DNA from: Agrococcus jenensis
GTDB taxonomy: Bacteria > Actinomycetota > Actinomycetes > Actinomycetales > Microbacteriaceae
Direction of reading: 5' to 3'
Assembly (NCBI RefSeq): GCF_003752465.1
Contig: NZ_RKHJ01000001.1
Coordinates: 186,001-250,000, forward strand
DNA: 64,000 nt
Made by a program: the position numbers and the translations under genes. Below, piece after piece: positions 16,730 through 30,049 of the stretch (positions are counted from its first letter, which is position 1; every line of letters starts with the position of its first letter). The notes under the pieces are model-generated. The model saw only the letters and a list, made by a program, of their open reading frames with translations. It made no database searches and had not been told where the DNA came from.

Positions 16730-18139
16730 TCAGCCGAACACGCCGCCCAGCAGGTAGATCGCGTAGGCGAGGATGAAGCCGACGATGGCCATGAGGCCCT
16801 GCGCGACCGTCCAGGTCTTCAGCGTGGTCTTGACGTCGAGCCCGAAGAACTTGCTGACGAGCCAGAAGCCCGAGTCGTTCACGTGGCTGAAGCCCACCGA
16901 GCCGGCAGCCGTGGCGAGCACGATCGCGGCGGTCTCGACCGGGTTGAAGCCGCCCTCGACGACCACGCCGGCCATGAGCGACGCGGCGGTCGTGAGCGCC
17001 ACGGTCGCCGAGCCCTGCGCGATGCGCACGATGAGCGAGATGAGGAACGCCGCCACGATGACGGGCATGCCGACCGAGTTCAGCGACTCGGCGATCGCGT
17101 CGCCGATGCCGGTGACGCGGAGCACGCCGCCGAACATGCCGCCCGCGCCCGTGACGAGCACGACGGAGCAGATGGGGCCGAGCGCGCTGTCGGCGACCTT
17201 CTCGATCAGCGAGCCCTTCTTGCCCATGCCCCAGCCGAGCAGCCAGAACGACACGATCACGGTGATGAGCAGCGCGATGGGCGTCTCGCCGAGCGTGCGC
17301 AGCAGCGCGACGACGGGCTCGGCCTTGAACGCGTCGGGGTCGGCCGTGGTCGCGGCGTACATGTTGAGGCCCGTGTTGAGCAGGATGAGCACGAGCGGCA
17401 GCACGAGCAGGAAGACGATCTTGCCGAACGAGGGGTTCGACTCCATCTCGTCGTGCTGCTCGGAGGTGCCGTCGAGGATCGAGGGCACGCCCACGTCGTA
17501 CTTGCGGCCGACGTAGCCGCCGAAGAGCACGCCGACGATGTACCAGACGGGCAGCGCGACGACGAGCCCGAGGATGAGCACGAGGCCGACGTCGGCGCCC
17601 AGGATCGCGGAGGCGCTCACGGGGCCGGGGTGCGGCGGCACGAAGATGTGCATCGAGCTGAAGGCGAGGGCCGCGGGGAACGCGACCGACAGCAGCGAGC
17701 CGCCGAGCCTGCGGGAGACGGCGTAGATGATCGGCATCATGACGACGAGGCCCGCGTCGAAGAAGATCGGGAAGCCCATGAGCAGGCTCGCGACGCCGAC
17801 GGCCATGCCGGCGCGCTGCTCGCCGAATCGGCCGATGAGCTTGTCGGTCAGCACGCGCGCGCCGCCCGACGTCTCGATCATGCGGCCGAGCATCGCGCCG
17901 AGCGCGACGAGCAGCATGACGCTGCCCAGGGTCGGGTTGAAGCCGAACTGGATGGCGGCGATGAGCCGGTCGAACGGGATGCCGGCGGCGACGGCCGTCA
18001 GCAGGCTCGTGATCATCAGCGCCAGGAAGGCGTGGATCTTGAAGGCCATGATGAGGACGAGCAGCAGCGCGATGGACGCGGCTGCCAGCAGCAGGAGCCC
18101 TCCGGTGCCGAGGTCCCAGTTGAGGACGAGATCTTCCAT
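16730..18139 (-). CDS. gntP: GntP family gluconate/sugar-acid permease
   Basis: A 469-residue proton symporter with about 12-14 helices, of the GntP/IdnT family. Family segments are LLMGFPIFFDAGLVVMMPI near 120, HIFVPPHPGPVSAS near 163 and GFSHVNDSGFWLVSKFFGLD near 420. It is expected to import gluconate, L-idonate or 5-ketogluconate. It is the last gene of the minus-strand sugar-acid operon, 83 bases after gntK and followed by a strong hairpin. With IdnD and IdnO upstream, an IdnT-like specificity is likely. The same operon also encodes an MFS permease. Confidence 0.93.
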   Translation of the reverse strand: MEDLVLNWDLGTGGLLLLAAASIALLLVLIMAFKIHAFLALMITSLLTAVAAGIPFDRLIAAIQFGFNPTLGSVMLLVALGAMLGRMIETSGGARVLTDKLIGRFGEQRAGMAVGVASLLMGFPIFFDAGLVVMMPIIYAVSRRLGGSLLSVAFPAALAFSSMHIFVPPHPGPVSASAILGADVGLVLILGLVVALPVWYIVGVLFGGYVGRKYDVGVPSILDGTSEQHDEMESNPSFGKIVFLLVLPLVLILLNTGLNMYAATTADPDAFKAEPVVALLRTLGETPIALLITVIVSFWLLGWGMGKKGSLIEKVADSALGPICSVVLVTGAGGMFGGVLRVTGIGDAIAESLNSVGMPVIVAAFLISLIVRIAQGSATVALTTAASLMAGVVVEGGFNPVETAAIVLATAAGSVGFSHVNDSGFWLVSKFFGLDVKTTLKTWTVAQGLMAIVGFILAYAIYLLGGVFG

Positions 18140-18198
18140 CGGGTCGTGTCTCCTGTGTGCGTGTGCGTGGGTGCGTGACCGCCGGCGGCGGCCGAGGG

Positions 18199-18231
18199 GA
18201 TCAGGGCGCGATCAGGGAGCGATCAGGCGGG
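18199..18231. repeat. 11-bp tandem repeat at the gntK stop
   Basis: GATCAGGGCGC, GATCAGGGAGC and GATCAGGCGGG lie head to tail. The third copy contains the gntK stop codon (18223-18225). The rest of the gntK-gntP gap is GT-rich. Confidence 0.6.
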
Positions 18232-18807
18232 CTGCGTGTCGATCGCGCCGGTGACCGTCGCGCCGGGACGGGGCTCGACGGCGCGGCCCGCTGCCCGGCC
18301 GGTGAGGATGCGGGTGACCTCGTCGACGATCGCCTCGGGCCGCTGCTCGATCGAGATGACGATGCCGCGCTCCCAGTCGGCGAGCGGCTCGAGCGTCTCG
18401 AGCTGGCTCTCGAGGAGCGTCGTCGGCATGTACTCGTGGTCGCGGTGCGCGAGCCGCTCGGCGACGAGGTCGCGCTCGCCGCGCAGGTGCACGAAGACGA
18501 GGTCCTGGTCGCTCGCGCGCAGCAGCTCGCGGTACCAGCGCTTGAGCGCCGAGCACGCGACGATCGTGATGCGGCCGTCGGCGCGGCCGTCGGCGATCGT
18601 CTGCCCGATCGTCTTGAGCCACGGCACGCGGTCCTCGTCGGTGAGGGGCGTGCCGCCGGCCATCTTGTCCTTGTTCGCCTTGGGGTGGAGGTCGTCCCCG
18701 TCGATGAAGTCGATGTTCAGGCGCTCGGCGAGCGCCTTCCCGATCGTCGACTTCCCCGACCCCTGCACGCCCATGATGATCATGGGCGGGTATCGCGTCT
18801 CGCTCAT
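18223..18807 (-). CDS. gntK: Gluconokinase
   Basis: A 194-residue P-loop kinase that phosphorylates D-gluconate to 6-phosphogluconate. The Walker A loop GVQGSGKST is at about residues 13-21. It is followed by DGDDLHPKANKDKMAGGTPLTDEDRVPWL, the substrate region of the GntK/IdnK family. CSALKRWYRELLR and FVHLRG come later. It is slightly longer than the E. coli protein because of an extra tail. The ATG overlaps the idnD stop as ATGA. It feeds the 6-phosphogluconate dehydrogenase encoded at 28607. Confidence 0.95.
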   Translation of the reverse strand: MSETRYPPMIIMGVQGSGKSTIGKALAERLNIDFIDGDDLHPKANKDKMAGGTPLTDEDRVPWLKTIGQTIADGRADGRITIVACSALKRWYRELLRASDQDLVFVHLRGERDLVAERLAHRDHEYMPTTLLESQLETLEPLADWERGIVISIEQRPEAIVDEVTRILTGRAAGRAVEPRPGATVTGAIDTQPA

Positions 18808-19865
18808 CGCACCGCTCCTGTGTCCGTCGTGGCTGCGAACGTCAGCAGCACCTTCGAGGATACGGATGCGTCGCGCGCGACGGCGAGCGCCTCGAGCCCG
18901 TCCTCGATCGGCAGCTCGTGGCTGATGACCGCGGCCGCGTCGAGGGAGCCGTCGGCGAGGGCGCCCAGCACGTCGTCGATCTCGTCGTTGAACCGGAAGG
19001 AGCCCACGAGCGTCAGCTCGCGCGTGATGGCGCTCGCCATCGGCACGGCGATGTCGCCCGCGCGCTGCAGCCCGAGCATCACGACGGTGCCGCCGCGCCG
19101 CGCGCCGCTGATCGCGGCGGCGAGGCCGGGGACGGTGCCGGACGACTCGATGACGACGTCGGCGTGCACGCCGGCGATCGCATCGGCATCCGTCGCGTCG
19201 AGGGCGCGGGCGCCGAGCCGCTCGGCGAGCGCGCGAGGATGCTCGTGCAGGTCGGTCGCGACCACCTCTGCGGCGCCGTGGTGGCGCGCGACCGCGATCG
19301 CGAGCGCGCCGATCGGGCCGGTGCCGATCACGAGCACGCGGCGGCCCGCGACGTCGCCCGCCTGGCCCACGCCGTGCCACGCGACGGCGGCCGGCTCGGC
19401 GAGCGCGGCGAGGCGCAGGTCGAGGCCGTCGGGGATCGCGCGGAGCATGCGCGCGGGCAGCGCCACCCGGCGCGCGAAGGCGCCTGCGGTGTGCGGCATC
19501 CGCGCCGCGGAGCCGAGGTAGGTGCCCGCGGGGCTGAGGTTCGGGCGGTCGGCCGGGAACGGCGTCGAGCCGTCGTCGATCGGGGTCGCGGGATGCACCG
19601 CGACGCGCGCACCCGCCGCGGGCCCGGTGCCGTCGGCGGCCGCGGTCAGCACGGTGCCGACGATCTCGTGGCCCAGCAGCATCGGCTCGCGCAGGATCGA
19701 CTGGCCGGCCGCGCCGTGCAGCCAGTAGTGCAGGTCGGAGCCGCAGATGCCGCCGTAGGCGATCTCGACGACCGCCTCGTCCGCACCCGGTGCGGGCTCC
19801 GGCAGCGCGTCGACGCGCACGTCGTCCTTGGCGTGGGCCACGAGGCCCAGGTTGTCGGTCATCAT
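18804..19865 (-). CDS. idnD: L-idonate 5-dehydrogenase (zinc MDR enzyme)
   Basis: A 353-residue medium-chain dehydrogenase that oxidises L-idonate to 5-ketogluconate. The catalytic zinc site is visible as GGICGSDLHY (Cys41) and LGHEIVG (His66, Glu67). The Rossmann motif GTGPIG is near 180. The ending VGSFRFNDEI...ALADG...SKVLLTF matches E. coli IdnD closely. Cys41 is the only cysteine in the chain: the four cysteines of the structural zinc lobe are absent, and residues 92-112 hold only Pro, Asp and Thr there. It lies 17 bases after idnO and is coupled to gntK. An MM start leaves one residue of uncertainty. Confidence 0.88.
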   Translation of the reverse strand: MMTDNLGLVAHAKDDVRVDALPEPAPGADEAVVEIAYGGICGSDLHYWLHGAAGQSILREPMLLGHEIVGTVLTAAADGTGPAAGARVAVHPATPIDDGSTPFPADRPNLSPAGTYLGSAARMPHTAGAFARRVALPARMLRAIPDGLDLRLAALAEPAAVAWHGVGQAGDVAGRRVLVIGTGPIGALAIAVARHHGAAEVVATDLHEHPRALAERLGARALDATDADAIAGVHADVVIESSGTVPGLAAAISGARRGGTVVMLGLQRAGDIAVPMASAITRELTLVGSFRFNDEIDDVLGALADGSLDAAAVISHELPIEDGLEALAVARDASVSSKVLLTFAATTDTGAVR

Positions 19866-19882
19866 GTCCCGCTCTCGATTGC

Positions 19883-20659
19883 CTAGACGACCGCGGTCAT
19901 GCCGCCGTCGACGTAGATGGTCTGGCCGTTCACGAAGGCGCTCGCGTCGCTCGAGAGGAACACGAGCGTGCCGACGAGGTCCTCGACCCTCCCCCAGCGG
20001 CCGGCGGGCGTGCGCTGCGCGACCCACGCCGAGAACTCCGCGTCGTCGACGAGCTTCTGCGTGAGCTCGGTGGCGAAGTAGCCGGGCGCGAGCGCGTTGA
20101 CGCTGATGCCGTGCGGCGCGAGGTCGGCGCAGAGGCCCTTCGTGAGCATGACGATCGCGCCCTTCGTCGCGCTGTAGGGCGCGATCGAGGGCCTCGCGAG
20201 CTGCGACTGCACGCTGCCGATCGAGACGATCCGGCCGGAGCCGCGGGCGATCATGCCGCGCGCGACGCGCCTGGACAGCAGGAAGGCGCTCGTGAGGTTC
20301 GTGGCGACGAGGTCGTGCCAGTCGGCGTCGGTGAAGTCCGCGATCGGGTTGCGGCGCTGGATGCCCGCGTTGTTCACGAGGATGTCGGGGGTGCCGAGCC
20401 GCGCCTCGACGTCGGCGATCCCGGCGTCGACCGCCTCGGCATCGGTGACGTCGAAGATCGCGACGTGCGCCTCGCGGCCCGTCGCCGCGCCGATCTCGGC
20501 CGCCGCGCGCTCCGCCTTCGCGCGGTCGCGGCCGTGCACCACGACGGTCGCGCCGGCCTGCGCGAGGCCCTCGACGAGCGCGCGGCCGATGCCCTGGCTC
20601 GAGCCGGTGACGAGGGCGGTGCGCCCGGTGAGGTCGAAGAGCGCGGGGCCTGCGGGCAT
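19883..20659 (-). CDS. idnO: Gluconate 5-dehydrogenase (SDR)
   Basis: A 258-residue short-chain dehydrogenase that reduces 5-ketogluconate to gluconate with NADPH. The cofactor loop TGSSQGIG is near 16-23 and NNAGIQRR near 90. The catalytic Ser is in GSVQSQLARPSIAPYSATKGA, which also holds the YxxxK pair. The strings APGYFATELT and RTPAGRWG match E. coli IdnO. The ATG overlaps the previous stop by one base (TGATG). With idnD downstream, the two enzymes convert idonate to gluconate. Confidence 0.9.
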   Translation of the reverse strand: MPAGPALFDLTGRTALVTGSSQGIGRALVEGLAQAGATVVVHGRDRAKAERAAAEIGAATGREAHVAIFDVTDAEAVDAGIADVEARLGTPDILVNNAGIQRRNPIADFTDADWHDLVATNLTSAFLLSRRVARGMIARGSGRIVSIGSVQSQLARPSIAPYSATKGAIVMLTKGLCADLAPHGISVNALAPGYFATELTQKLVDDAEFSAWVAQRTPAGRWGRVEDLVGTLVFLSSDASAFVNGQTIYVDGGMTAVV

Positions 20660-21714
20660 CAGTAGAACTCCTTGGTCGACATCACGTTCTGCATGGGCTC
20701 GCCGTCGAGGAGGCGGGTCGCGTTGGCCGCGAAGAGCTCGGCGATGCGGCGCGGCTCCTGCACCGAGAGGGCGGCGGTGTGCGGGCTGAGCAGCACGCTC
20801 GGGTGCTCCCACAGGCGCGACTCGGTCGGGAGCGGCTCGACCGCGGTGACGTCGAGCGCGGCGAAGCCGATGCGGCCGGCGTCGAGGGCGTCGAGCAGCG
20901 CGTCCTCGTCGACGACGGTGCCGCGACCTACGTTGACGAGGATCGTGTCGTCGCGCACGGCGCCGAGCACGTCGGCGCCGATGAGGCCGGTCGTGTGCGC
21001 CGTGCCGGGCAGCGTCGCGACGATCGCGTCGACCTGCCCCGCGGCCTCGACGAGCTCGTCGATCGGCACGAGGCGATCGACGTGCTCCACGGGCTCGCCG
21101 GAGCGCGTCGTGCCCCACACGGTCGCCCCGAGCGCCGAGAAGCGCTCGGCGACGACGGCGCCGATGCCGCCGAGCCCGACGACGAGCACCGTCATCTCGC
21201 TGACGTGCCGCATGAGCCGCCGGCCGTCGCCCCACGTGCGCGACGCCTGGTCCGCCTCGAGCCGGCGCAGGCCCTTCGCCCCCGCGAGCACGCCGAAGAC
21301 GGCCCACTCGGCGAGGGTCGTGGCGTGCATGCCCGCGCTCGTGGAGACGACGACGCGCTCGAGCTCGTCGTCGGTCAGCTGCGCGTTCCGCACCTGGCCG
21401 CCCCCGCCGGCCGCGGTCGTGTGCAGCCACCGCAGCCGCGGGTTCGCGCGGACAGTGCGGGCGAGCGCCTGCGGCGACACGTCCGGGAGCCCGAAGAGGG
21501 CGTCCGCCGAGTCGAGCATCGCCTCGAACGCCTCCTGCTGCTCGGGGGTGCGCTCCCACGAGGGGTCGCCCTCCCAGTCGCCCGTCCAGCGCCAGGGGCG
21601 CGTGAGCGAGGGGTCGCGCAGCAGCTCGACGCGCGGCTCGAGCTCGCGGATGCGGTCGGCGCTCGCGTCGTCGATGCTCACCGCGACGGCGACCTTCAGG
21701 GTGGGACCGGGCAT
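20659..21714 (-). CDS. D-2-hydroxyacid dehydrogenase, possible 2-ketoaldonate reductase
   Basis: A 351-residue NAD(P)-dependent enzyme of the D-isomer-specific 2-hydroxyacid dehydrogenase family. The Rossmann loop GLGGIG is near 188. The catalytic Arg lies in NVGRGTVVDEDALLDAL, the Glu in VTAVEPLP and the His in SPHTA. The N-terminal part is unusually Trp-rich (RPWRWTGDWEGDPSWER). In this operon, reduction of 2-keto-L-gulonate to L-idonate is the most economical role, as for E. coli GhrB, but that is inference. AAGGAG precedes the ATG. It follows the fumarylacetoacetase-family gene after a 72-base gap with tandem repeats. Confidence 0.85.
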   Translation of the reverse strand: MPGPTLKVAVAVSIDDASADRIRELEPRVELLRDPSLTRPWRWTGDWEGDPSWERTPEQQEAFEAMLDSADALFGLPDVSPQALARTVRANPRLRWLHTTAAGGGGQVRNAQLTDDELERVVVSTSAGMHATTLAEWAVFGVLAGAKGLRRLEADQASRTWGDGRRLMRHVSEMTVLVVGLGGIGAVVAERFSALGATVWGTTRSGEPVEHVDRLVPIDELVEAAGQVDAIVATLPGTAHTTGLIGADVLGAVRDDTILVNVGRGTVVDEDALLDALDAGRIGFAALDVTAVEPLPTESRLWEHPSVLLSPHTAALSVQEPRRIAELFAANATRLLDGEPMQNVMSTKEFY

Positions 21715-21743
21715 GGCTGTCTCCTTCGTTGCAAGGCTATCGA

Positions 21744-21780
21744 TGCGGCGCGCGGAGTGCGGCGCGCGGTGTGCGGCGCA
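21744..21780. repeat. 14-bp tandem repeat between two operon genes
   Basis: TGCGGCGCGCGGAG (21744-21757) and TGCGGCGCGCGGTG (21758-21771), then a partial third copy. It fills most of the short gap between the fumarylacetoacetase-family and hydroxyacid dehydrogenase genes. Confidence 0.55.
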
Positions 21781-21786
21781 GTGCGC

Positions 21787-22551
21787 TCAGCGCAGGGGCG
21801 TCTCGAGCCGGAGCCCGCCGACCACGACCGAGACCGTGGAGCCCGCGGCCACCTCGTGGTTCGAGCGCGGCGCGCCGGCCATGATCACGTCGCCGGGCCC
21901 GAGCCGCAGCCAGCCGGCGACGTACGCGATCGACTCGCGCACGGGCACGGGCATGGCCTGCGCGCTCGTGTCGCGCACGACCTCGCCGTCGACCTCGAGC
22001 CGCAGGACGAGGTCGTCGATCGGGGCCTCGGTGTCGATCCAGGGGCCGAGCGGCGTCGAGCCGTCGCCGCCCTTCGACTCGAAGTTGCGCACGTCGAGCA
22101 CGGCGCGGTCCGGGTAGGAGAGGTCGTTCACCGCGGTGACGCCGAGCACGAACTCCTGCGCGTTCGCCGCCGTGACGAGCGTCTCGGTGGGGTCGCCCGT
22201 GTCGCGGCCGATGACGACCGCGACCTCGGCCTCCGCGACGACGCGGCCGGCATCGCGGCGCACGCGCACGGCTGCGCCGTGCGGCACGACGCCGCGCGGG
22301 CTCTTCAGCCACGCCTGCACCGGCAGCGGCGGCTCCGGGTCGGCCCCGCGGTTCTGCGCGATGCCGACGAGCACGGTCGGCACGGCCGGCGCCAGGAGCG
22401 TCGCGTCGCGACCGTCGACGCGCTCCCCCGCGTCGACGACCGGCGTGCCCGCGGCGAGCGCGGCGTACGGGTCGTCGATCGGCACCCAGCCGTCGCCGTC
22501 CGCGCGGACGTGCAGCGCGCGGCCGTCGACGGCGATGCGGGCGATGCGCAT
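21787..22551 (-). CDS. Fumarylacetoacetate hydrolase family protein
   Basis: A 254-residue enzyme of the FAH superfamily, whose members are acylpyruvate hydrolases, 2-keto-3-deoxy-sugar-acid dehydratases or decarboxylases. A short N-terminal lobe is followed by the core with SPRGVVPHGA, the metal-binding glutamates in EAEVAVVIG, and SKGGDGSTPLGPWIDT near 160. MAGAPRSNHEVAAGSTVSV closes the fold. In a sugar-acid operon a 2-keto-3-deoxy-aldonate-directed activity is plausible; the substrate cannot be read. The ATG overlaps the permease stop by one base (TGATG). Confidence 0.85.
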   Translation of the reverse strand: MRIARIAVDGRALHVRADGDGWVPIDDPYAALAAGTPVVDAGERVDGRDATLLAPAVPTVLVGIAQNRGADPEPPLPVQAWLKSPRGVVPHGAAVRVRRDAGRVVAEAEVAVVIGRDTGDPTETLVTAANAQEFVLGVTAVNDLSYPDRAVLDVRNFESKGGDGSTPLGPWIDTEAPIDDLVLRLEVDGEVVRDTSAQAMPVPVRESIAYVAGWLRLGPGDVIMAGAPRSNHEVAAGSTVSVVVGGLRLETPLR

Positions 22552-23978
22552 CAGCGGGCGGCCGTCGCGACGGGCAGGTCCGCGTCGCGGTCGTGCCCCT
22601 CGTCGGTCGAGACGTTCACGGCATCCTCGAGGCGCAGCAGGTCGCGACCGCGCGTCTCGGGCACGAGGAACGTCGATGCGGTCGAGATGAGCGCGAGCGT
22701 GGCCATGTAGATCGCCGGCAGCAGCCAGTTGCCGCCGGACGTGGCGAGCAGGTAGGCGCCCAGCACGCCCGCGAGCCCGCCGCCCAGCACGGCCGAGATC
22801 TCGCGCGCCATCGCGACGCCCAGGTAGCGGTGCCGGTTGCCGAACATCTCGGGCAGCATCGCGCACTGCGGGCCGAGCATGGTGTTCACGGCGATGCCGA
22901 TGCCGAGCGCGATGACGACCACGACCGTCGCCGGGTCGCCCTGCGACAGCAGCCACCACGCGGGGAACGCGTAGAGCAGCATGAAGACGGCGCCGAAGCG
23001 GTACACCGCGCGGCGGCCGAAGCGGTCCGAGAGGTGGCCGGTGAGCGGGATCGTGCCCATGCCGATGAGCGAGCCGATCGTGACGCCCCAGGTGGCGACG
23101 CCGCGGTCGACCGGGTTGGCGATGAACGTGCCGGCGACGAAGGCGAGCGCGAGGTTCTGGAACATGTAGGAGCCGCCGTTCTCGGCCATCCGCAGACCGA
23201 TGCCGACCACGACGCCCGGGAACCCCTTCGTGAAGATCTCGCGGATCGGGCGCTCGGCCACCTGCTCGTGCTTCTCGAGCTCGACGAACGTCGGCGTCTC
23301 GCGGAGGCGCATCCGGATGAAGAGCGCGACGAGGATGAGCACGAACGACAGCAGGAACGGCACGCGCCAGGCCCAGCCGAGGAAGACGTCCTCCGGCAGC
23401 GACGAGAGGAAGGTGAAGACGACGGCGGCGAGCAGCGTGCCGAGCTGGATGCCGATGAAGGGCAGCGACGAGAAGAAGCCGCGGCGGCGCACCGGCGAGT
23501 ACTCCGCCATCAGCACGGTCGCGCCGGCCTGCTCGGCGCCAGCGCCGAAGCCCTGCGCGAGGCGCAGCACCGTCAGCAGCACGGGGGCCCAGATGCCGAT
23601 CTGCTCGTAGGTCGGCAGCAGCCCGATGAGCGTCGTCGCGCCGCCCATGAGCAGGATCGTGACGACGAGCACCCACTTGCGGCCGATGCGGTCGCCGATC
23701 GTGCCGAAGAAGAGGCCGCCGAGCGGCCGGGCGGCGAAGCCGACGCCGAACGAGGCGAACGCCGCGACGACGCCCATCGCCGGGTCGAGGTCGCTGAAGA
23801 AGAGCGTGTTGAAGATGAGCGCGGACGACAGGCCGTAGAGGGCGAAGTCGAAGTACTCGAGGGCGCTGCCGACGCTCGAGGCGAGCGTCGCCCGGCGCAG
23901 GTTGGCTGCGTACTCCGGATCGTCGGTGTGTGCGGGGCGCTGCGGCGTGGGGTCCTGCTGCGCGGTGGTCTCGGTCAC
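22551..23978 (-). CDS. MFS transporter, metabolite:H+ symporter (MHS) type
   Basis: A 475-residue permease with 12 predicted helices. The MHS marks are SALEYFDFALYGLSSALIF at the first helix, the loop GDRIGRKWVL near 93, and the RRRGFFSS segment after the fifth helix. It probably imports an organic acid or sugar acid. The start is the GTG at 23978 with AAGGAG 7 bases before it; the longer frame upstream lacks one. It is the first gene of the operon after the IclR gene, with its own promoter and a palindrome at the start site. Confidence 0.9.
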   Translation of the reverse strand: MTETTAQQDPTPQRPAHTDDPEYAANLRRATLASSVGSALEYFDFALYGLSSALIFNTLFFSDLDPAMGVVAAFASFGVGFAARPLGGLFFGTIGDRIGRKWVLVVTILLMGGATTLIGLLPTYEQIGIWAPVLLTVLRLAQGFGAGAEQAGATVLMAEYSPVRRRGFFSSLPFIGIQLGTLLAAVVFTFLSSLPEDVFLGWAWRVPFLLSFVLILVALFIRMRLRETPTFVELEKHEQVAERPIREIFTKGFPGVVVGIGLRMAENGGSYMFQNLALAFVAGTFIANPVDRGVATWGVTIGSLIGMGTIPLTGHLSDRFGRRAVYRFGAVFMLLYAFPAWWLLSQGDPATVVVVIALGIGIAVNTMLGPQCAMLPEMFGNRHRYLGVAMAREISAVLGGGLAGVLGAYLLATSGGNWLLPAIYMATLALISTASTFLVPETRGRDLLRLEDAVNVSTDEGHDRDADLPVATAAR

Positions 23979-24017: not shown

Positions 24018-24023
24018 GAGGCG

Positions 24024-24052
24024 AGCGTACCACTGGGCTGAACGCCGTACAA
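24024..24052 (-). promoter_or_regulatory. Promoter of the sugar-acid operon
   Basis: Minus-strand TTGTAC (24052-24047), 17 bases, then TACGCT (24029-24024) preceded by TGG, an extended -10. It is the strongest promoter read in this part of the window, and the same TGGTACGCT occurs before manA. Confidence 0.6.
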
Positions 24053-24077
24053 CCCTTTGAACAGCGAGCGACCGAGG

Positions 24078-24896
24078 CTAGGCGACTGGCCCGCGGAGCG
24101 GGTTGGAGAGCGCGGCGACCGCGTCCCGCAGCGCCGCCCCGACCTCCCCCACCCGCGCCTCGTCGGCGTGCTCGGCGGGCAGCGCCGCGCCCATCGCGAG
24201 CGGCGGATCCGCGGGCGCCCACGGGTCGAGCGCGACCGCGACGCCGGTGATGCCGCCGAACGAGCCGCCGCGGTCGACCGCGAAGCCCTGCTCGCGCGCC
24301 TCGCGCAGCATGGGCAGCAGCTCGTCGACCGTCGTGATGCTCGTGGCCGTCAGCCGCGGGAAGGGCTCCGCGGGTGCGAGGAGCGCGCGCACCTCGTCAT
24401 CCTCGAGGCGGGCGAGCAGCGCCACCCCGGTCGCGCTGAGCGGTGCGGGCAGCCGCGAGCCGAGCGGCGTCCCGAGCCGGTAGGGCGAGCGCCCCTCGTG
24501 GCGCGCGAGGTAGAGCGCGTCGACGCCGTCGAGCATGGCGATCTGCACGACCTCGCGGTGCAGCGCGGGCGAGGCCGCGACGACGCGGTAGAACTCGCGC
24601 ACCTGGTTGAACTGCTGCGCGAACGCGCCGCCGAGCTCCGCCGTGCGGCGACCGAGGCGGTAGCCGCCCGCCTCGCGCTCGACCATGCCGCCCTCCTCGA
24701 GCGCCGCGCACAGGTTCGCGGTCGACGACTTGGCGATGCCGAGCGCCCTGGCGATGTCGCTGAGCGTCATCGGCACCCCCTCGGCGTCGGCGAGCGAGGT
24801 GAGGATGCGGAGGGCGCGCGAGACCGCGGGCGCCGGGTCGCGGTCGGTGCGCTCCGTCGCGCCGTCGTGCGGCTGCGTCGCTGCGTGCTGGGCCAT
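24078..24896 (-). CDS. IclR family transcriptional regulator
   Basis: A 272-residue regulator. The winged helix-turn-helix at about 25-85 contains RALRILTSLAD, MTLSDIARALGIAKSSTANLCAALEEGGMVER and YRLGRRTAELG. An IclR effector domain follows with LPAPLSATGVALLA and GFAVDRGGSFGGITGVAVAL. AAGGAG lies 7 bases before the ATG. It lies between a divergent dehydrogenase gene and the sugar-acid operon, so it probably controls both and itself, with a sugar acid or keto acid as effector. A 13-residue polar N-terminus precedes the DNA-binding domain. Confidence 0.9.
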   Translation of the reverse strand: MAQHAATQPHDGATERTDRDPAPAVSRALRILTSLADAEGVPMTLSDIARALGIAKSSTANLCAALEEGGMVEREAGGYRLGRRTAELGGAFAQQFNQVREFYRVVAASPALHREVVQIAMLDGVDALYLARHEGRSPYRLGTPLGSRLPAPLSATGVALLARLEDDEVRALLAPAEPFPRLTATSITTVDELLPMLREAREQGFAVDRGGSFGGITGVAVALDPWAPADPPLAMGAALPAEHADEARVGEVGAALRDAVAALSNPLRGPVA

Positions 24897-24931: not shown

Positions 24932-24960
24932 ACCCTAGGGCGCATCCACATCGGTGGACA
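24932..24960 (-). promoter_or_regulatory. Promoter of the IclR gene
   Basis: Minus-strand TGTCCA (24960-24955), 17 bases, TAGGGT (24937-24932), giving a leader of about 29 bases with AAGGAG. The -35 lies inside the palindrome at 24956-24966. Confidence 0.45.
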
Positions 24961-24966
24961 GTGTCC
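24956..24966. promoter_or_regulatory. GGACA-G-TGTCC palindrome between divergent promoters
   Basis: A perfect 11-base palindrome with one central base. It overlaps the IclR -35 and lies 7 bases upstream of the -35 of the divergent gene. An autoregulatory IclR site is the simplest reading. Confidence 0.5.
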
Positions 24967-24973
24967 GACATGC

Positions 24974-25002: not shown

Positions 25003-25008
25003 GAGCGC

Positions 25009-25932
25009 ATGGACACCGCAGTCTCCGGCGCAGCAGCCGACGCAGCACCTTCCGACGACCGGGCCGGCGCGATCGGCGTCATCGGGCTCGGCGCGATGGG
25101 CGAGCCCATGGTGCGTCGCCTGCTCGGCAGCGGGAGCCGCGTGCGGATCACCGGCCGCTCCCCCCGGCCCGCGCTCGTCGAGGCCGGCGCCTCGTGGGCG
25201 GCGACGCCGCGCGAGCTCGCCGCGGGAGCCGGTGCCGTGCTCTCGATGCTGCCCGACCTGCCCGAGCTCGAGCAGGCGCTCGACGGACCGGACGGCCTGC
25301 TCGCAGGGCTCGGCGACGGCGAGCTGCTGCTGCTCATCGGCTCGACCTCCTCGGCTCCTGCGGTGCGGGCGCTCGCGGAGCGGCTCGCGACGGAGACGCA
25401 GGGGCGCGTGCGCGTGGTCGACTGCCCCGTGTCGGGCGGCGTGGACGGCGCAGAGGCCGGGTCGCTCTCGATCATGCTCGGCGGCAGCGCCGAGGACGCC
25501 GAGCGCGCAGCGGCCCTGCTCGCGCCCTGCGGCCGGCCGGTGCACCTCGGCCCGCTCGGCGCCGGCGAGGTGGCGAAGGCCTGCAACCAGCTGGTCGTCG
25601 CGGCGACGATCACCGCCCTCGGCGAGGCGACCGTGCTCGCCGACCGGTCGGGGCTCGACCTCGACGCGCTCTGGACGCTGCTCGGCGGCGGCTACGCGGG
25701 CTCGAACCTGCTCGAGAGCCGACGCGACAAGCTCGTGCGCGGCGACGACTCGCCGTCGGGGATCGCCCGCTACATGATCAAGGACCTCGGCTTCGCGGCC
25801 GACATCGCCGAGGCGACCGGCACGAGCCCGGCCCTGCTCCCCGCGCTGCGGGCGTTCTTCGACGAGATCGTCGCGCGCGGCTACGGCGACCGCGACATCG
25901 CCGTCAGCCGCCGCGTGGTCGCCGAGCGCTAG
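25009..25932 (+). CDS. 3-hydroxyisobutyrate dehydrogenase family (tartronate-semialdehyde-reductase-like)
   Basis: A 307-residue beta-hydroxyacid dehydrogenase. GVIGLGAMGEPMV at about 23-35 binds the cofactor. DCPVSGGVDGAEAGSLSIMLGG near 142 is the substrate loop, and GEVAKACNQLVVAATITALGEA near 185 holds the catalytic lysine. The arginine in TGRSP after the second strand suggests NADPH preference. The transcript is probably leaderless. Divergent to IclR and convergent with the LLM gene, overlapping it by 4 bases. A role in reducing a sugar-acid breakdown semialdehyde is inference. Confidence 0.87.
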   Translation: MDTAVSGAAADAAPSDDRAGAIGVIGLGAMGEPMVRRLLGSGSRVRITGRSPRPALVEAGASWAATPRELAAGAGAVLSMLPDLPELEQALDGPDGLLAGLGDGELLLLIGSTSSAPAVRALAERLATETQGRVRVVDCPVSGGVDGAEAGSLSIMLGGSAEDAERAAALLAPCGRPVHLGPLGAGEVAKACNQLVVAATITALGEATVLADRSGLDLDALWTLLGGGYAGSNLLESRRDKLVRGDDSPSGIARYMIKDLGFAADIAEATGTSPALLPALRAFFDEIVARGYGDRDIAVSRRVVAER

Positions 25933-26888
25933 GCCGACTGGCGCAGGCGCGGCCCCAGCTCGTCCTGGAAGAAGCCCATGAAGGCGTCGGGGTCGGTGCT
26001 CGCGTCCATGAGCACGAGGTGGTCGAAGCCCGCATCGCGGAACTCCGAGAACACCTCGACGTGCCGCTCCACGTCGGGGCCGCACGCGAACGCCTCCTCC
26101 ATGTCCTCGACGCGGATCGACTGGGTCGCCTGGTCGAACGCGGTCGGGTCGGGCAGCTCGGCGAGCACCTTCCACCCGAGCGGTCCGAACCGGAACCGCT
26201 CGTGCGCGGCCTCCGCGCCCGCGCGCGCGTCGGGTGCGAACGCGGTGGGCACCTCGCAGTAGCGCGGCCCGTCGCCGCCCGCAGCCGTCCACGCCTCGAT
26301 GAGCGACGCATCGGGGTCGGTCGAGAACAGGCCGTCGCCGAGCTCGGCGGCGAGCGCGGCGGCCTGCGGGCCGCCGGCCGCGACGACGATCTCGGGCAGC
26401 GTCTCCGGCAGGTCGTAGACGCGCGCGTCCTGGAGCGTCAGGAAGTCGCCGCGGTAGGAGTGCGTGCCGCCCGACCAGAGCAGCCGGATGATCTCGAGCG
26501 CCTCCCGGAAGCGCCGGTGCCGATCGCCGACCTCCGGCCAGCCCTGCCCGACGATGCGCTCGCTGAGCCGCTCCCCCGCGCCGACGCCGAGCGTGAAGCG
26601 GCCGTCCGAGATGATCTGGAGCGTCGCCGCCGCCTGGGCGATGATCGCCGGGTGGTAGCGGATCGACGGGCAGGTGACGCCGGTCGCGAGCCGCAGCGTC
26701 TCGGTCTTCGCCGCGATCGCCGACAGGATCGCCCACGCGAACGACGAGTGCTGGTGCTCGGGCAGCCAGGGGTGGAAGTGGTCGCTGATCTCGACGAAGT
26801 CGAAGCCGGCGCGCTCGGCCTCGACCGCTCGCCGGATGAGCTCCTTGGGTGCGACGTCCTCGGCGAAGAGCTTGTATCCGATCTGCAT
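25929..26888 (-). CDS. F420-dependent LLM-class oxidoreductase, FGD-like
   Basis: A 319-residue luciferase-fold enzyme close to F420-dependent glucose-6-phosphate dehydrogenase. The active-site set of FGD is kept: SDHFHPW gives His37 and Trp41, and GVGAGERLSE gives Glu106. The lysines and arginine that hold the sugar phosphate in mycobacterial FGD are not evident in the C-terminal half, so the substrate may be a non-phosphorylated sugar or something else. The transcript is probably leaderless (TACCGT, 6 bases, ATG). It lies next to an SMP-30 lactonase, which would suit a sugar-to-lactone oxidation. No F420 biosynthesis gene is in the window. Confidence 0.85.
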   Translation of the reverse strand: MQIGYKLFAEDVAPKELIRRAVEAERAGFDFVEISDHFHPWLPEHQHSSFAWAILSAIAAKTETLRLATGVTCPSIRYHPAIIAQAAATLQIISDGRFTLGVGAGERLSERIVGQGWPEVGDRHRRFREALEIIRLLWSGGTHSYRGDFLTLQDARVYDLPETLPEIVVAAGGPQAAALAAELGDGLFSTDPDASLIEAWTAAGGDGPRYCEVPTAFAPDARAGAEAAHERFRFGPLGWKVLAELPDPTAFDQATQSIRVEDMEEAFACGPDVERHVEVFSEFRDAGFDHLVLMDASTDPDAFMGFFQDELGPRLRQSA

Positions 26889-26894
26889 GCGTCG

Positions 26895-26900: not shown

Positions 26901-26937
26901 GGAGCCCCACCTGGATGCCCGGTGGGGGACGCGACGG

Positions 26938-27816
26938 TCAGGCGGCGAGGGTCGCCGTGCGGATCCGGTAGACGCTCGTCGTCGCCGCGATCCACAGCCA
27001 GCCGTCGTCGCCGAAGCACAGGTTCGCGACCGTCTCGGGCACCGGCACGTGCCCGATGCGCTCCCCCGCCGGGGTGATGATGTGCACGCCGTCCGCGCTC
27101 GACGACCAGATGCGCCCCTCCGCGTCGATCGCGATGCCGTCGGGGGTGCCCGCGTCCATCGCGAACAGCCGGCGCCCGTCGACCGCGCGCACCTCGGCGC
27201 CCTCGCCCTCGAGCCGGTAGGCGCGGATCGTGCTGGCCTCCGCCGTCTCGTCCTCGCCGCCCGACTCGGTGACGTAGAGTGTCGCCAGGTCGGGGCTGAA
27301 GGCGATGCCGTTCGGGCGCGCCATGTCGGTGATCACCGCGCGGAGCCCGGCGTCGGCGCTCCAGCGGAAGACGAACGATCCGCCGTACTCGCGCTCCCCC
27401 GGGTGGCCCTCCTCGGGCTTCTCGATGCCGTAGGGCGGGTCGGTGAACCAGATGGAGCCGTCGGGGTGCACCGCGAGGTCGTTCGGCGAGTTCAGCCGCC
27501 GCCCCTCGAAGCGGTCGACGAGCACCGTGACCTCGCCGTCGACCTCCAGCTCGATCGCCCGCCGGCCGTGCGAGCACTGCGCCACCCCGCCGAGCCAGAG
27601 CCCGCGGCCGTTCGTGAACTCGACGCCCACGCGGTGCTCGCGCATGGTGCCGGCCTCGTCGACCTCGAGGATGCGGTCGCCGTGGATGTCGCTCCAGCGC
27701 AGCACGCGCTCGTCCGGCAGCCAGAGCGGGCCCTCGCTCCACGAGGCGCCCGTCGCCATCCGCTCGAGGGTCGCGCCGGGCGCGAGCAGGTCGTGGTCGG
27801 AGCCGTCTGCGTGCAT
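26938..27816 (-). CDS. SMP-30/gluconolactonase family lactonase
   Basis: A 292-residue six-bladed beta-propeller hydrolase that opens sugar lactones to aldonic acids. Metal ligands can be read as the Glu in GASWSEGPLWLPDERVL, the Asn in LNSPNDLAVHPDGSIWFTD, a second Asn in ARPNGIAFSPD, and the Asp in GTPDGIAIDAEGRIW. Length is typical. It follows the FGD-like gene on the same strand, which could supply the lactone, and product aldonate could enter the idonate/gluconate path. A TTGCAT box lies 7 bases before the ATG, so a leaderless transcript is possible but weakly supported. Confidence 0.9.
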   Translation of the reverse strand: MHADGSDHDLLAPGATLERMATGASWSEGPLWLPDERVLRWSDIHGDRILEVDEAGTMREHRVGVEFTNGRGLWLGGVAQCSHGRRAIELEVDGEVTVLVDRFEGRRLNSPNDLAVHPDGSIWFTDPPYGIEKPEEGHPGEREYGGSFVFRWSADAGLRAVITDMARPNGIAFSPDLATLYVTESGGEDETAEASTIRAYRLEGEGAEVRAVDGRRLFAMDAGTPDGIAIDAEGRIWSSSADGVHIITPAGERIGHVPVPETVANLCFGDDGWLWIAATTSVYRIRTATLAA

Positions 27817-27870
27817 GCCGCCGATGCAAGCACCCGCGCCTGCGCGGCGCCTGCGAGGGGCTCCGCCGGG

Positions 27871-28437
27871 TCAGTGGCGGGTCGGCCGGTAGGTGAGCTC
27901 GAGCGCGCGCCCGTCGAGCGTGCGCGATCCGAGCAGCTCGAGGTCGAAGTCGTCGGCGCCCTCGAAGATGCGGCCGTCGCCGGTGCGGCCCGTGACCACG
28001 GGGAAGACCGTGAGCTGCACGACGTCGACGAGCCCTGCGGCCATGAGCGCCCGGTTCAGCCGCAGGCTGCCGTGCGAGCGCAGCGGCACGTCCGACGCCT
28101 CCTTGAGCCGCGCCACCTCCTCGAGCACATCGCCGCGGGCGATCGTCGCGTCCTGCCAGTCGAGCGGCTCCTCGAGCGTCGACGAGACCACCGTGAGCGG
28201 CATCCGGCGCATGCGCGACACCCAGGCGTCCTCCTCCCACGTGCCGTCCGGCACCATCGCGACGAAGTCGCGGTAGGTGTTCGCGCCGAAGACCATCCGC
28301 TGCGGCGTGGCGAAGAGCGCCTCGCGGTGCTCGAGCAGCTCCGGGCCCTGCTTGCCCCAGTAGCCGCCCCAGTCGCCGTGGTGGGAGCCGTAGCCGTCGA
28401 CGCTCGTGAAGACGTCGAACGTGTAGGTGGCGGTCAT
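27871..28437 (-). CDS. RibD C-terminal / dihydrofolate-reductase-like protein
   Basis: A 188-residue NADPH-binding protein of the dihydrofolate-reductase superfamily, RibD_C type. It opens TYTFDVFTSVDGYGSHHGDWG, has GANTYRDFVAMVPDG near 52, and RSHGSLRLNRALMAAGLVDVVQLTVFPVVTGRTGDGRIFEG with the usual C-terminal strands. Stand-alone members are common in actinomycetes and lack a settled role. They are not the main folate or riboflavin enzymes. GAGGAG precedes the ATG. No FMN riboswitch is seen in the 169-base divergent gap before gnd. Confidence 0.82.
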   Translation of the reverse strand: MTATYTFDVFTSVDGYGSHHGDWGGYWGKQGPELLEHREALFATPQRMVFGANTYRDFVAMVPDGTWEEDAWVSRMRRMPLTVVSSTLEEPLDWQDATIARGDVLEEVARLKEASDVPLRSHGSLRLNRALMAAGLVDVVQLTVFPVVTGRTGDGRIFEGADDFDLELLGSRTLDGRALELTYRPTRH

Positions 28438-28462
28438 CGCGGTGCTCCTCGCCTCGGCGGGC

Positions 28463-28484
28463 CCATCGACGGGCCATCGACGGG
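28463..28484. repeat. 11-bp direct repeat in the gnd divergent region
   Basis: CCATCGACGGG occurs twice head to tail. The unit is itself partly palindromic with its flanks. It lies between the divergent starts of the DHFR-like gene and gnd. Confidence 0.5.
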
Positions 28485-28565
28485 CTCAGCTCGATCGTGC
28501 GGCGGATGCCGAGCCCTGTCAAGGCCGCAGGCCTCACCGCCCGCGGCGGCGCATCCGCTGCTGGG

Positions 28566-28571
28566 TAGCCT
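28566..28571 (+). promoter_or_regulatory. Possible -10 box for gnd
   Basis: TAGCCT lies 35 bases before the gnd GTG and leaves room for the AGGAGG site at 28595-28600. No clear -35 is present. The rest of 28438-28606 shows only the direct repeat. Confidence 0.35.
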
Positions 28572-28606
28572 TGCCTCAGACCCCCGAGCCGTCCAGGAGG
28601 ACCTCC

Positions 28607-30049
28607 GTGACCACTGCCAACATCGCCGTCGTCGGCCTCGCCGTGATGGGTTCGAACCTCGCCCGCAACCTCGCGTCCCGCGAGGGCAACACCGTCGCCG
28701 TCTACAACCGCACGACGGCGAAGACCGACGACCTCATCGCCGCGCACCCGGAGGCGGGCTTCGTGAAGGCCGCGACGATGCAGGAGCTCGCCGACTCGCT
28801 CCAGCAGCCGCGCACCGCCATCATCATGGTGAAGGCCGGACGTCCGACCGACGCGGTCATCGACGAGCTCGTGTCGGTGTTCGAGCCGGGCGACATCATC
28901 GTCGACGGGGGCAACGCGCTCTTCACCGACACCATCCGCCGCGAGGCTGCCGTGCGCGAGACGGGCATCCACTTCGTCGGCTGCGGCATCTCCGGCGGCG
29001 AGGAGGGCGCGCTCAACGGCCCGTCGCTCATGCCCGGCGGCACCGCGGAGTCGTACGAGACGCTCGGCCCGATCCTCACCGGCATCGCCGCGGTCGCCGA
29101 GGGCGAGCCGTGCGTGACGCACGTCGGCACCGACGGCGCCGGCCACTTCGTGAAGATGGTCCACAACGGCATCGAGTACGCCGACATGCAGCTCATCGCC
29201 GAGGCCTACGACCTCATCCGCCGCGGCACGGGCAAGTCGCCCGCCGAGATCGCGGAGGTCTTCGAGGAGTGGAACCGGGGCGAGCTCGAGTCGTACCTCA
29301 TCGAGATCACCGCGGAGGTGCTGCGACAGGTCGACGCCGAGACGGGCCAGCCGCTCGTCGACGTGATCCTCGACGCCGCCGGCGCGAAGGGCACCGGCGC
29401 CTGGACCGTGCAGACCGCCCTCGACCTGGGCGTGCCGGTCTCGGGCATCGCGGAGGCCGTCTTCGCCCGCTCGCTGTCGTCGAAGCTCGACCAGCGCGCC
29501 GCCGCCTCCGACCTCCCCGGCCCCTCGGACGAGTGGCTCGTCGACGACGCGGACGCGTTCGTCGAGGACGTGCGGAAGGCGCTGTTCGCGTCGAAGATCG
29601 TCGCCTACTCGCAGGGCTTCGACGAGATCGTCGCCGCCGCCGAGGAGCACGGCTGGGACATCCAGAAGGGCGAGGTCGCCCGCATCTGGCGCGCGGGCTG
29701 CATCATCCGCGCGCGCTTCCTCAACGACATCACCGAGGCCTACGCGACGACGCCCGAGCTGCCCGCGCTCATCCTCGCCCCGTACTTCCGCGAGATCATG
29801 GGCCAGACCCACGAGGCATGGCGCCGCGTCGTCATCGCCGCGGCGCAGGCGGGCATCCCCTCGCCGGCGTTCTCGTCGAGCCTCGCCTACTACGACGGCC
29901 TGCGCGCCGACCGCCTGCCCGCCGCGCTCGTGCAGGGGCAGCGCGACTTCTTCGGCGCGCACACCTACCGCCGCGTCGACAAGCAGGGCACCTTCCACAC
30001 CCAGTGGTCCGGCGACCGCACCGAGGTCGAGGCGGTCGACACGCACTGA
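28607..30049 (+). CDS. gnd: 6-phosphogluconate dehydrogenase, decarboxylating
   Basis: A 480-residue enzyme that oxidises 6-phosphogluconate to ribulose 5-phosphate with NADP. The cofactor loop is GLAVMGSNLARNLA with YNRTTAKTD, an NADP-type sequence. Catalytic segments are DGGNALFTDTIRR, GISGGEEGALNGPSLMPGG and HVGTDGAGHFVKMVHNGIEYADMQ. The ending has TFHTQWSG. The GTG at 28607 has a perfect AGGAGG 6 bases before it, so the longer open frame is not used. Placed at the edge of the sugar-acid island, it takes the gluconokinase product onward. It is convergent with the response regulator gene, 12 bases away. Confidence 0.96.
   Translation: MTTANIAVVGLAVMGSNLARNLASREGNTVAVYNRTTAKTDDLIAAHPEAGFVKAATMQELADSLQQPRTAIIMVKAGRPTDAVIDELVSVFEPGDIIVDGGNALFTDTIRREAAVRETGIHFVGCGISGGEEGALNGPSLMPGGTAESYETLGPILTGIAAVAEGEPCVTHVGTDGAGHFVKMVHNGIEYADMQLIAEAYDLIRRGTGKSPAEIAEVFEEWNRGELESYLIEITAEVLRQVDAETGQPLVDVILDAAGAKGTGAWTVQTALDLGVPVSGIAEAVFARSLSSKLDQRAAASDLPGPSDEWLVDDADAFVEDVRKALFASKIVAYSQGFDEIVAAAEEHGWDIQKGEVARIWRAGCIIRARFLNDITEAYATTPELPALILAPYFREIMGQTHEAWRRVVIAAAQAGIPSPAFSSSLAYYDGLRADRLPAALVQGQRDFFGAHTYRRVDKQGTFHTQWSGDRTEVEAVDTH

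What the first reader, a model, noticed from the sequence alone, without database searches (positions are those of the whole stretch)
16730..30049. Self-contained sugar-acid island joining L-idonate, ketogluconate and gluconate to the pentose phosphate pathway
IdnD, IdnO, gluconokinase and GntP lie in one minus-strand run with an MFS permease, a 2-hydroxyacid dehydrogenase and a fumarylacetoacetase-family enzyme. All are tightly spaced or overlapping. gnd, an SMP-30 lactonase and an FGD-like enzyme lie within 6 kb. E. coli IdnDOTK is established. The hydroxyacid dehydrogenase reducing 2-keto-L-gulonate to idonate, and the fumarylacetoacetase-family enzyme acting on a side product, are inference. 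The whole set reads as a route not described in this form.
Basis: partly seen in the sequence, partly recalled or inferred. Interest (0 to 1): 0.7.

Follow-up and report, generated by a model that had tools for sequence, protein, structure and literature searches.

The report
Actinobacterial ketogluconate and idonate gene cluster
An actinobacterium carries a set of genes under one predicted switch that probably imports oxidised sugar acids and funnels them through gluconate into central metabolism; the main chemistry is already known, but two enzymes in the set have no assigned step.

Summary
In detail: a minus-strand run gntP-gntK-idnD-idnO-HADH-FAH-MFS lies at 16730-23978. The set recurs: of 80 FAH relatives fetched, 68 have the HADH, 64 idnO and 62 garR nearby. 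A palindrome, GTTGAACACTGTTCAAC, marks the garR/hadh, garR/iclR, iclR/mfs and fah/iclR junctions and almost no others. It occurs twice in the window, so the predicted regulon is garR plus iclR-to-gntP; gnd, SMP-30 and LLM have no site here. 'Not described in this form' fails for the chemistry: 2-keto-L-gulonate to 6-phosphogluconate by way of idonate is the published fungal glucuronate route, and E. coli Idn covers the lower half. The HADH is more likely a general 2-ketoaldonate reductase: of 43 family genomes with it, 18 lack idnD and idnO at my cut-offs and all 18 keep gntK. New are the actinobacterial two-module assembly, its predicted operator, and an FAH subfamily with a changed lid and unknown reaction. 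All substrates are inferred.

The parts
16730..18139 (-). gntP, GntP-family gluconate/idonate carrier
   Evidence: PF02447 391 bits; TIGR00791 357 bits, above cut-off 292.75
18223..18807 (-). gntK, gluconokinase of GntK/IdnK type
   Evidence: TIGR01313 183.5 bits, above cut-off 113.75; 42% to E. coli IdnK
18804..19862 (-). idnD-like zinc-type L-idonate 5-dehydrogenase
   Evidence: best NCBIfam hit L-idonate 5-dehydrogenase, 232 of 469 bits; 34% to E. coli IdnD
19883..20659 (-). idnO-like 5-ketogluconate reductase (SDR)
   Evidence: 48% to E. coli IdnO; gluconate 5-dehydrogenase model 311 of 408 bits
20659..21714 (-). hadh, D-2-hydroxyacid dehydrogenase, proposed 2-ketoaldonate reductase
   Evidence: PF02826 155 bits; R264, E293, H312 invariant in 13 sequences
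21787..22551 (-). fah, FAH-superfamily enzyme of unknown reaction
   Evidence: PF01557 118 bits; E107, E109, D143, K160 invariant in 11 sequences
22551..23978 (-). mfs, MHS-type metabolite/H+ symporter
   Evidence: PF00083 125 bits; TIGR00883 379 of 443 bits
24037..24053 (.). predicted IclR site in the iclR/mfs gap
   Evidence: 13.3 bits, not in the training set
24078..24896 (-). iclR, IclR-family regulator
   Evidence: PF01614 and PF09339
24953..24969 (.). predicted IclR site between iclR and garR
   Evidence: 18.1 bits, region used in training
25009..25932 (+). garR, GarR/HIBADH-like dehydrogenase of unknown step
   Evidence: PF03446 and PF14833; best hit 2-hydroxy-3-oxopropionate reductase, 162 of 397 bits; in 62 of 80 loci
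28607..30049 (+). gnd, 6-phosphogluconate dehydrogenase; neighbour and metabolic exit, not in the predicted regulon
   Evidence: TIGR00873 663 bits, above cut-off; 0 of 29 gnd/garR gaps hold a site
26938..27816 (-). SMP-30/gluconolactonase-like; neighbour, membership doubtful
   Evidence: PF08450 136 bits; near FAH in 5 of 80 loci

Best explanation
This is an IclR-controlled regulon for peripheral catabolism of oxidised hexonic acids. The MHS permease takes up a 2-ketoaldonate and GntP takes up gluconate or idonate. The D-2-hydroxyacid dehydrogenase reduces the C2 keto group: 2-keto-D-gluconate to D-gluconate directly, and also 2-keto-L-gulonate to L-idonate or 2,5-diketogluconate to 5-ketogluconate. 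IdnD and IdnO turn L-idonate through 5-ketogluconate into D-gluconate. GntK phosphorylates it and Gnd carries it into the pentose phosphate pathway. IclR binds the palindromes before garR/iclR and before mfs and controls both promoters. Shown here: gene content, recurrence, the two-module build, the sequence pattern of the operator. Inferred: all substrates, direction of flux, binding and repression by IclR, cofactors. FAH and GarR belong to the predicted regulon but their step is unknown.
For: Family assignments. Of 80 FAH relatives: iclR 73, mfs 71, hadh 68, idnO 64, garR 62, idnD 61, gntK 48 within 10 kb. HADH stands beside gntK without idn genes within 5 kb in 12 of the 48 actinobacterial HADH loci in the tree (maps). 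Of 43 family genomes with HADH, 18 lack idnD and idnO at my cut-offs and all 18 have gntK. Two congeners (L065, L066) keep hadh-idnO-idnD-gntK-gntP next to gnd with no FAH, MFS, IclR, GarR or operator, so HADH can stand with the idn genes without the rest. Operator: 53 of 54 garR/hadh and 5 of 6 garR/iclR gaps (used to build the matrix), 50 of 65 iclR/mfs and 5 of 5 fah/iclR gaps (not used), 0 of 29 gnd/garR, 0 of 12 GntR-gene/gntP, 0 of 21 fah/idnD, 0 of 50 hadh/iclR. No edd over cut-off.
Against: IdnD, IdnO, HADH, MFS, FAH, GarR and IclR pass no curated NCBIfam cut-off among the hits shown, so every substrate is inferred. The window HADH lies in a clade of module-B enzymes apart from 9 of the 12 gntK-only rows, so specificity may have shifted. 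Three of the 43 HADH genomes have no gntK at E<=1e-20. In Georgenia, Oceanitalea, M. barkeri and M. oryzae the iclR, mfs, fah and hadh genes stand without idn genes within 10 kb (L094, L095, L147, L151). FAH and GarR are not explained by this route.
Confidence: 0.6

Rival explanations
1. One reading: the HADH is a dedicated 2-keto-L-gulonate reductase and the run is a bacterial counterpart of the lower fungal glucuronate route (2-keto-L-gulonate to idonate to 5-ketogluconate to gluconate).
For: hadh, idnO and idnD lie together in the window, in two congeners without module B and in many of the 80 loci. HADH and idnD co-occur in 23 of 150 family genomes, more than expected (Fisher p 3e-5; genomes not corrected for kinship). 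The window HADH clade (17 rows) is mostly idn-linked. Same chemistry in A. niger (PMC5306355).
Against: 18 of 43 HADH genomes lack idnD and idnO at my cut-offs, where idonate would have no obvious exit; four module-B loci have no idn genes within 10 kb.
Confidence: 0.2
2. Module B (garR, iclR, mfs, fah, hadh) handles a different, smaller acid, for example a C3-C4 hydroxy- or ketoacid from ascorbate, tartrate or threonate: FAH and HADH convert it and GarR yields glycerate. Its place beside the idn genes reflects a shared slot.
For: Module B stands alone in L094, L095, L147 and L151 and is a separate unit from the GntR-linked gntP-idnO-idnD unit in loci such as L096 and L104. GarR's best hit is tartronate-semialdehyde-type reductase, IclR's best hits are BhcR and PcaR-type with AllR below, all far under cut-off. 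In L067 two genes beyond garR are glycolate-oxidase-GlcD-like and iron-sulphur-like, both under cut-off. FAH relatives include decarboxylase- and isomerase-named enzymes.
Against: idnO and idnD lie downstream of mfs inside the same run in many loci. HADH relatives sit with gntK and gnd. Two congeners lost module B but kept hadh with the idn genes.
Confidence: 0.15
3. The genes are gathered by a common insertion slot (gnd to rplY-pth-mfd) without one shared pathway.
For: The slot content varies widely among genera.
Against: The same set also occurs away from gnd: gnd is within reach in only 45 of 80 loci (some loci are cut by contig ends). A shared operator marks the module.
Confidence: 0.05

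Closest known systems
E. coli GntII / Idn L-idonate system (idnD, idnO, idnT, idnR, idnK)
   Same: Homologues of IdnD, IdnO, the kinase and the GntP-family carrier; same lower chemistry
   Different: IclR in place of IdnR (recalled as LacI-type); extra HADH, MFS, FAH and GarR; homologues only 33-48% identical; IdnD without the cysteines of the structural-zinc loop
Fungal D-glucuronate pathway (GluC/GluD, GluE, GluF)
   Same: Order 2-keto-L-gulonate, L-idonate, 5-ketogluconate, gluconate, 6-phosphogluconate; clustered reductase and dehydrogenase genes (PMC5306355 abstract and discussion; PMC4870679 and PMC5814732 abstracts)
   Different: Fungal genes; begins at glucuronate and gulonate, which I did not look for in this genome; no FAH or GarR in what I read
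Bacterial 2-ketoaldonate reductase (E. coli GhrB/TkrA type, EC 1.1.1.215)
   Same: Same superfamily and proposed reaction; activity on 2-keto-L-gulonate reported (Yum 1998, seen only as cited in PMC5306355)
   Different: 75 of 492 bits on the GhrB model; 31% over 180 residues
FAH superfamily (HpcE 1gtt, M. smegmatis 4pfz, 4dbf)
   Same: Same domain; metal-ligand and lysine positions kept (roles recalled)
   Different: Shorter lid stretch without the conserved His/Glu seen in 4pfz; below every NCBIfam cut-off shown

Membership tests
E. coli-type Idn (GntII) L-idonate system | L-idonate 5-dehydrogenase | tested here: inconclusive
   Best NCBIfam hit but 232 of 469 bits; 34% identity
E. coli-type Idn (GntII) L-idonate system | 5-ketogluconate reductase | tested here: inconclusive
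   48% identity to IdnO; PRK08085 311 of 408 bits
E. coli-type Idn (GntII) L-idonate system | GntK/IdnK-type kinase and GntP-family carrier | tested here: met
   TIGR01313 and TIGR00791 above cut-off
E. coli-type Idn (GntII) L-idonate system | LacI-type IdnR regulator in the cluster (recalled) | tested here: not met
   The regulator beside the run is IclR-family
2-ketoaldonate reductase of the D-2-hydroxyacid dehydrogenase family | NAD-binding domain and catalytic Arg/Glu/His | tested here: met
   PF02826; R264, E293, H312 invariant in 13; roles recalled
2-ketoaldonate reductase of the D-2-hydroxyacid dehydrogenase family | GhrB equivalog score | tested here: not met
   75 of 492 bits
2-ketoaldonate reductase of the D-2-hydroxyacid dehydrogenase family | activity on a 2-ketoaldonate | not testable with these tools
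   Needs an assay; only gene context here
FAH superfamily | FAA_hydrolase domain with metal ligands and lysine | tested here: met
   PF01557 118 bits; E107, E109, D143, K160 invariant in 11; roles recalled
FAH-type hydrolase or decarboxylase | His-Glu lid dyad (recalled from FAHD1) | tested here: inconclusive
   No invariant His or Glu before E107 in 11 sequences, though a His is present there in many relatives; model shows no helix at residues 66-78 but confidence there is low (block pLDDT 75 and 66)
IclR-controlled regulon | palindromic site at the promoters of linked genes | tested here: met
   binding itself not tested
Fungal-type glucuronate pathway | uronate reductase and L-gulonate oxidation | not tested
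   Not searched for in this genome

The most novel reading that the evidence does not exclude
The FAH subfamily with the altered lid is not a hydrolase but a metal-dependent enolising isomerase or lyase acting on a ketoaldonate. With the GarR-type enzyme it opens a second, undescribed branch of ketogluconate catabolism, carried as an IclR-controlled module through Microbacteriaceae, Micrococcaceae, Promicromonosporaceae and relatives.
Probability: 0.22. Interest if true: 0.6.

Novelty: new variant of a known kind. Interest (0 to 1): 0.38.

Why it matters
A defined regulon with a predicted operator gives a direct and cheap test of what these actinobacteria eat, and places a conserved but unassigned FAH enzyme beside known pathway enzymes, which narrows its possible reaction. 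For annotation it shows that gnd, SMP-30 and LLM should not be counted into the regulon on position alone. Four word searches for this gene set or regulator in actinobacteria returned no paper; the library holds open-licence papers only.

Tried and rejected
(2) A first naive ORF caller over-extended genes; it was replaced by a codon-usage caller trained on window genes and one search is not used. The caller failed on much of L052. (3) F420 link of the LLM enzyme through CofD: one hit, but the same model rings in 10 of 14 control genomes, E. coli included, so it says nothing. (4) A second genomic match of the operator core at G000:C1:2843677 scores 11.6 bits and lies before a predicted glycosyltransferase-like gene (name recalled); taken as chance. 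(5) Dehydratases that would make FAH a 2,4-diketo-3-deoxyaldonate hydrolase: none among the 27 neighbour proteins scanned (10, 7, 10); most other neighbours were not scanned. (6) Fold search of the FAH model never ran.

Rejected: gnd, SMP-30 and LLM as regulon members (no site beside them in the window; 0 of 29 gnd/garR junctions). Against this for SMP-30: one relative (L072) has a site in its smp30/gntK gap (15.3 bits).

Limits of the counts: the 80 loci are the best of 266; 41 are Microbacterium, and some are cut by contig ends. Presence needs 35-50% identity, by gene, over at least 45% of the query. One search used 43 of the 48 HADH genomes (5 weaker ones, E 1e-48 to 1e-51, dropped), with lists copied by hand from the tables; presence means E<=1e-60 for idnD, 1e-75 for idnO, 1e-20 for gntK. 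In one search, 113 of 120 sites of 12 bits or more fall in four junction types, two of which trained the matrix; only gaps between called genes, cut at 700 bases, were scanned. One training region, L093, scores only 6.9. In the family sample (cut-off 11) all 14 loci with iclR, mfs or fah near hadh at the cut-offs have a site (L080 weak, at the hadh end), against 4 of the 26 others (L050, L057, L073, L076). L047 has a weaker IclR near hadh and no site. Some of these genomes are also in the training set: L069 and L070 share contig lengths with L148 and L162. The tree holds 49 rows; five family HADHs called shorter than 300 residues were dropped, L052 had none called, and 13 of the 80 later loci were added (14 chosen, L154 gave none). 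The context label of the window row was typed by hand.
Full report
WHAT IS THERE. From the regulator downwards on the minus strand it reads iclR (24078-24896), MHS-type mfs (22551-23978), FAH-family fah (21787-22551), D-2-hydroxyacid dehydrogenase hadh (20659-21714), idnO (19883-20659), idnD (18804-19862), gntK (18223-18807), gntP (16730-18139). Divergent from iclR stands a GarR/HIBADH-like gene (25009-25932). gntK and gntP pass curated NCBIfam cut-offs; idnD, idnO, mfs and garR have the expected kind of best hit but miss the cut-offs, and the HADH, FAH and IclR have only weak or generic ones. Against E. coli K-12: gntP 33%, gntK 42%, idnD 34%, idnO 48%, hadh to GhrB 31% over 180 residues. The IdnD-like enzyme keeps the catalytic-zinc motifs but lacks the cysteines that line up with the E. 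coli structural-zinc loop, as do the seven relatives aligned (roles of these residues recalled).

WHOSE GENOME. The window is 186001-250000 of a single-contig 2.96 Mb genome. The closest named FAH matches are Agrococcus (six loci, 66-73%), so the organism is very probably an Agrococcus.

RECURRENCE. In 150 genomes of the family, HADH (E<=1e-40) occurs in 48 and FAH (E<=1e-40) in 6; in all 6 the two lie within 3.3 kb of each other. A weaker FAH (35-39% by tblastn) lies near the HADH in further fetched family loci. In 297 genomes of the order, HADH (E<=1e-80) occurs in 36. FAH at E<=1e-50 occurs in 210, but nearly all are weaker hits that look like another paralogue; 7 score above 250 bits (my cut, at the gap between 269 and 222 bits). 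Of these 7, 5 have HADH within 3.3 kb and the two of genus g163 have no HADH at that threshold. The scan with the FAH alignment kept 80 of 266 relatives. Within 10 kb, at my identity cut-offs, these hold iclR 73, mfs 71, hadh 68, idnO 64, garR 62, idnD 61, gntK 48, gnd 45, gntP 23, llm 7, smp30 5 of 80. Forty-one of the 80 are Microbacterium; the named rest spreads over 12 further genera. Both Cryobacterium loci lack the hadh, iclR, mfs, garR and idn partners, 4 of 6 Arthrobacter and 2 of 3 Promicromonospora loci lack the hadh, and the Psychromicrobium locus has only mfs, so the link is strong but not universal.

A SHARED SLOT AND TWO MODULES. In many family members the HADH sits in a slot between gnd and three genes I recall as rplY, pth and mfd. 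The contents vary: hadh alone, gntK-hadh, hadh-idnO-idnD-gntK-gntP, or garR/hadh-iclR-mfs-idnO-fah-idnD. Two congeners (L065, L066) have gnd, then hadh-idnO-idnD-gntK-gntP, without fah, mfs, iclR or garR. In some Microbacterium (e.g. L096, L104) gntP-idnO-idnD is a separate unit beside a regulator gene, GntR-family in L096, and garR/hadh-iclR-mfs-fah is its own unit. Georgenia and Oceanitalea carry iclR-mfs-fah-hadh, and M. barkeri and M. oryzae garR/hadh-iclR-mfs-fah, with no idn genes within 10 kb. The window is thus a fusion of an Idn-like module A and a module B (garR, iclR, mfs, fah, hadh).

A PREDICTED OPERATOR. Sixty garR/hadh or garR/iclR regions, the window's included, gave a palindrome, consensus GTTGAACACTGTTCAAC, 20.8 bits; scores in the regions had median 22.1 (range 6.5-28.7) against -4.7 in 300 shuffled regions (maximum 9.3). 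In 1001 gaps between called genes of the 80 loci, 120 hold a site of 12 bits or more, 113 of them in four junction types: garR/hadh 53 of 54, iclR/mfs 50 of 65, garR/iclR 5 of 6, fah/iclR 5 of 5. The first and third trained the matrix; the other two did not. Other common junctions have none: gnd/garR 0 of 29, GntR-gene/gntP 0 of 12, hadh/iclR 0 of 50, fah/idnD 0 of 21. In the 64 kb window only two places exceed 7 bits: 24953-24969 (18.1) and 24037-24053 (13.3). The exact core occurs at one other place in the genome, scoring 11.6 and lying elsewhere. In the family sample all 14 loci with iclR, mfs or fah near hadh have a site of 11 bits or more, 4 of the 26 others do, and the two congeners without module B do not. 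I read this as the IclR operator; binding is not shown.

WHAT THE HADH DOES. It has the superfamily's Arg, Glu and His (R264, E293, H312); an invariant Arg (R204) after the nucleotide-binding motif hints at NADPH (inference). Of 43 family genomes with a strong HADH, 23 have idnD, 22 idnO, 20 both and 18 neither; all 18 have gntK, while 3 of the 43 (each with idnD) have no gntK at my cut-off. In the 18, reducing 2-keto-L-gulonate would end in idonate with no visible exit, whereas reducing 2-keto-D-gluconate gives gluconate for GntK. Against a simple transfer of this argument, the tree puts the window HADH in a supported clade of 17 rows (15 module-B contexts and the two congeners), apart from most gntK-only enzymes, 9 of 12 of which fall in another supported clade. 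A broad 2-ketoaldonate reductase is the best compromise.

WHAT FAH AND GARR DO. Unknown. FAH keeps the metal-ligand and lysine positions in 11 sequences (E107, E109, D143, K160). The stretch that reads NYAAHAEE in the solved relative 4pfz is shorter here and has no invariant His or Glu, although many relatives have a His nearby. The AlphaFold model (mean pLDDT 87, pTM 0.87) shows no helix at residues 66-78, but confidence is low there. If a His-Glu lid dyad is needed for hydrolysis or decarboxylation, as I recall for FAHD1, this subfamily may do another, enolising reaction. This is the most novel reading and is not tested. A smaller-acid reading also stays open: in L067 two genes beyond garR are GlcD-like and iron-sulphur-like, under cut-off.

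WHAT IS KNOWN. The chain 2-keto-L-gulonate, L-idonate, 5-ketogluconate, gluconate, 6-phosphogluconate is proposed for A. niger on the strength of gene deletions and purified enzymes (PMC5814732, abstract; PMC4870679, abstract; PMC5306355, abstract and discussion). That discussion also names the E. coli L-idonate pathway (Bausch 1998, 2004) and a bacterial gluconate 2-dehydrogenase active on 2-keto-L-gulonate (Yum 1998); I did not see those papers. Four word searches for the gene set in actinobacteria returned no paper; some searches listed papers that I did not open. Agrococcus chionoecetis is described as assimilating gluconate (passage of PMC12089952) and A. pavilionensis was predicted to use it (passage of PMC6196244); the word ketogluconate occurs in the main text of neither. 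No edd above cut-off was found in the genome (best 251 of 708 bits), which fits exit by gnd.

VERDICT. A real, recurrent sugar-acid cluster under one predicted switch. The main chemistry is known, the actinobacterial assembly is a variant, and the FAH/GarR part is the open question.

Noticed in passing
window 30062-33893: A response-regulator and sensor-kinase pair (minus strand) stands divergent from a dicarboxylate/glutamate-type symporter gene (plus strand) next to gnd; it looks like a separate organic-acid uptake system (names recalled from sequence).
   Followed up: no
window 25929-26888: LLM enzyme of TIGR03557 (419 bits, cut-off 210) but not true F420-dependent glucose-6-phosphate dehydrogenase (TIGR03554, 186 of 420 bits). 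It is near FAH in 6 of 7 Agrococcus loci, so it looks like a genus neighbour rather than a module member.
   Followed up: partly
L057 around 9149; L076 around 2891: Operator-like sites (18.8 and 13.6 bits) near the end of hadh, before a gene I recall as rplY, in loci where the maps show no iclR or mfs.
   Followed up: no
L072 around 17737: Operator-like site of 15.3 bits in the smp30/gntK gap, a hint that SMP-30 is co-regulated in that genome though not in the window.
   Followed up: no
L159 2360-8810: In Pseudarthrobacter the hadh-fah-iclR-mfs-idnO-idnD set follows a run that looks like a homoprotocatechuate cluster (one gene matched FAA_hydrolase; the rest recalled from sequence).
   Followed up: partly
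L157 7811-9703: In an Arthrobacter a different D-2-hydroxyacid dehydrogenase and a putative cyclase stand directly before fah, so FAH is paired with such a dehydrogenase even where the usual one is missing.
   Followed up: partly
L094 and L095, 7715-11900: Georgenia and Oceanitalea iclR-mfs-fah-hadh have the window's order and are 66-83% identical to it, closer than Agrococcus jejuensis (L140, 52-76%), which suggests horizontal transfer.
   Followed up: partly
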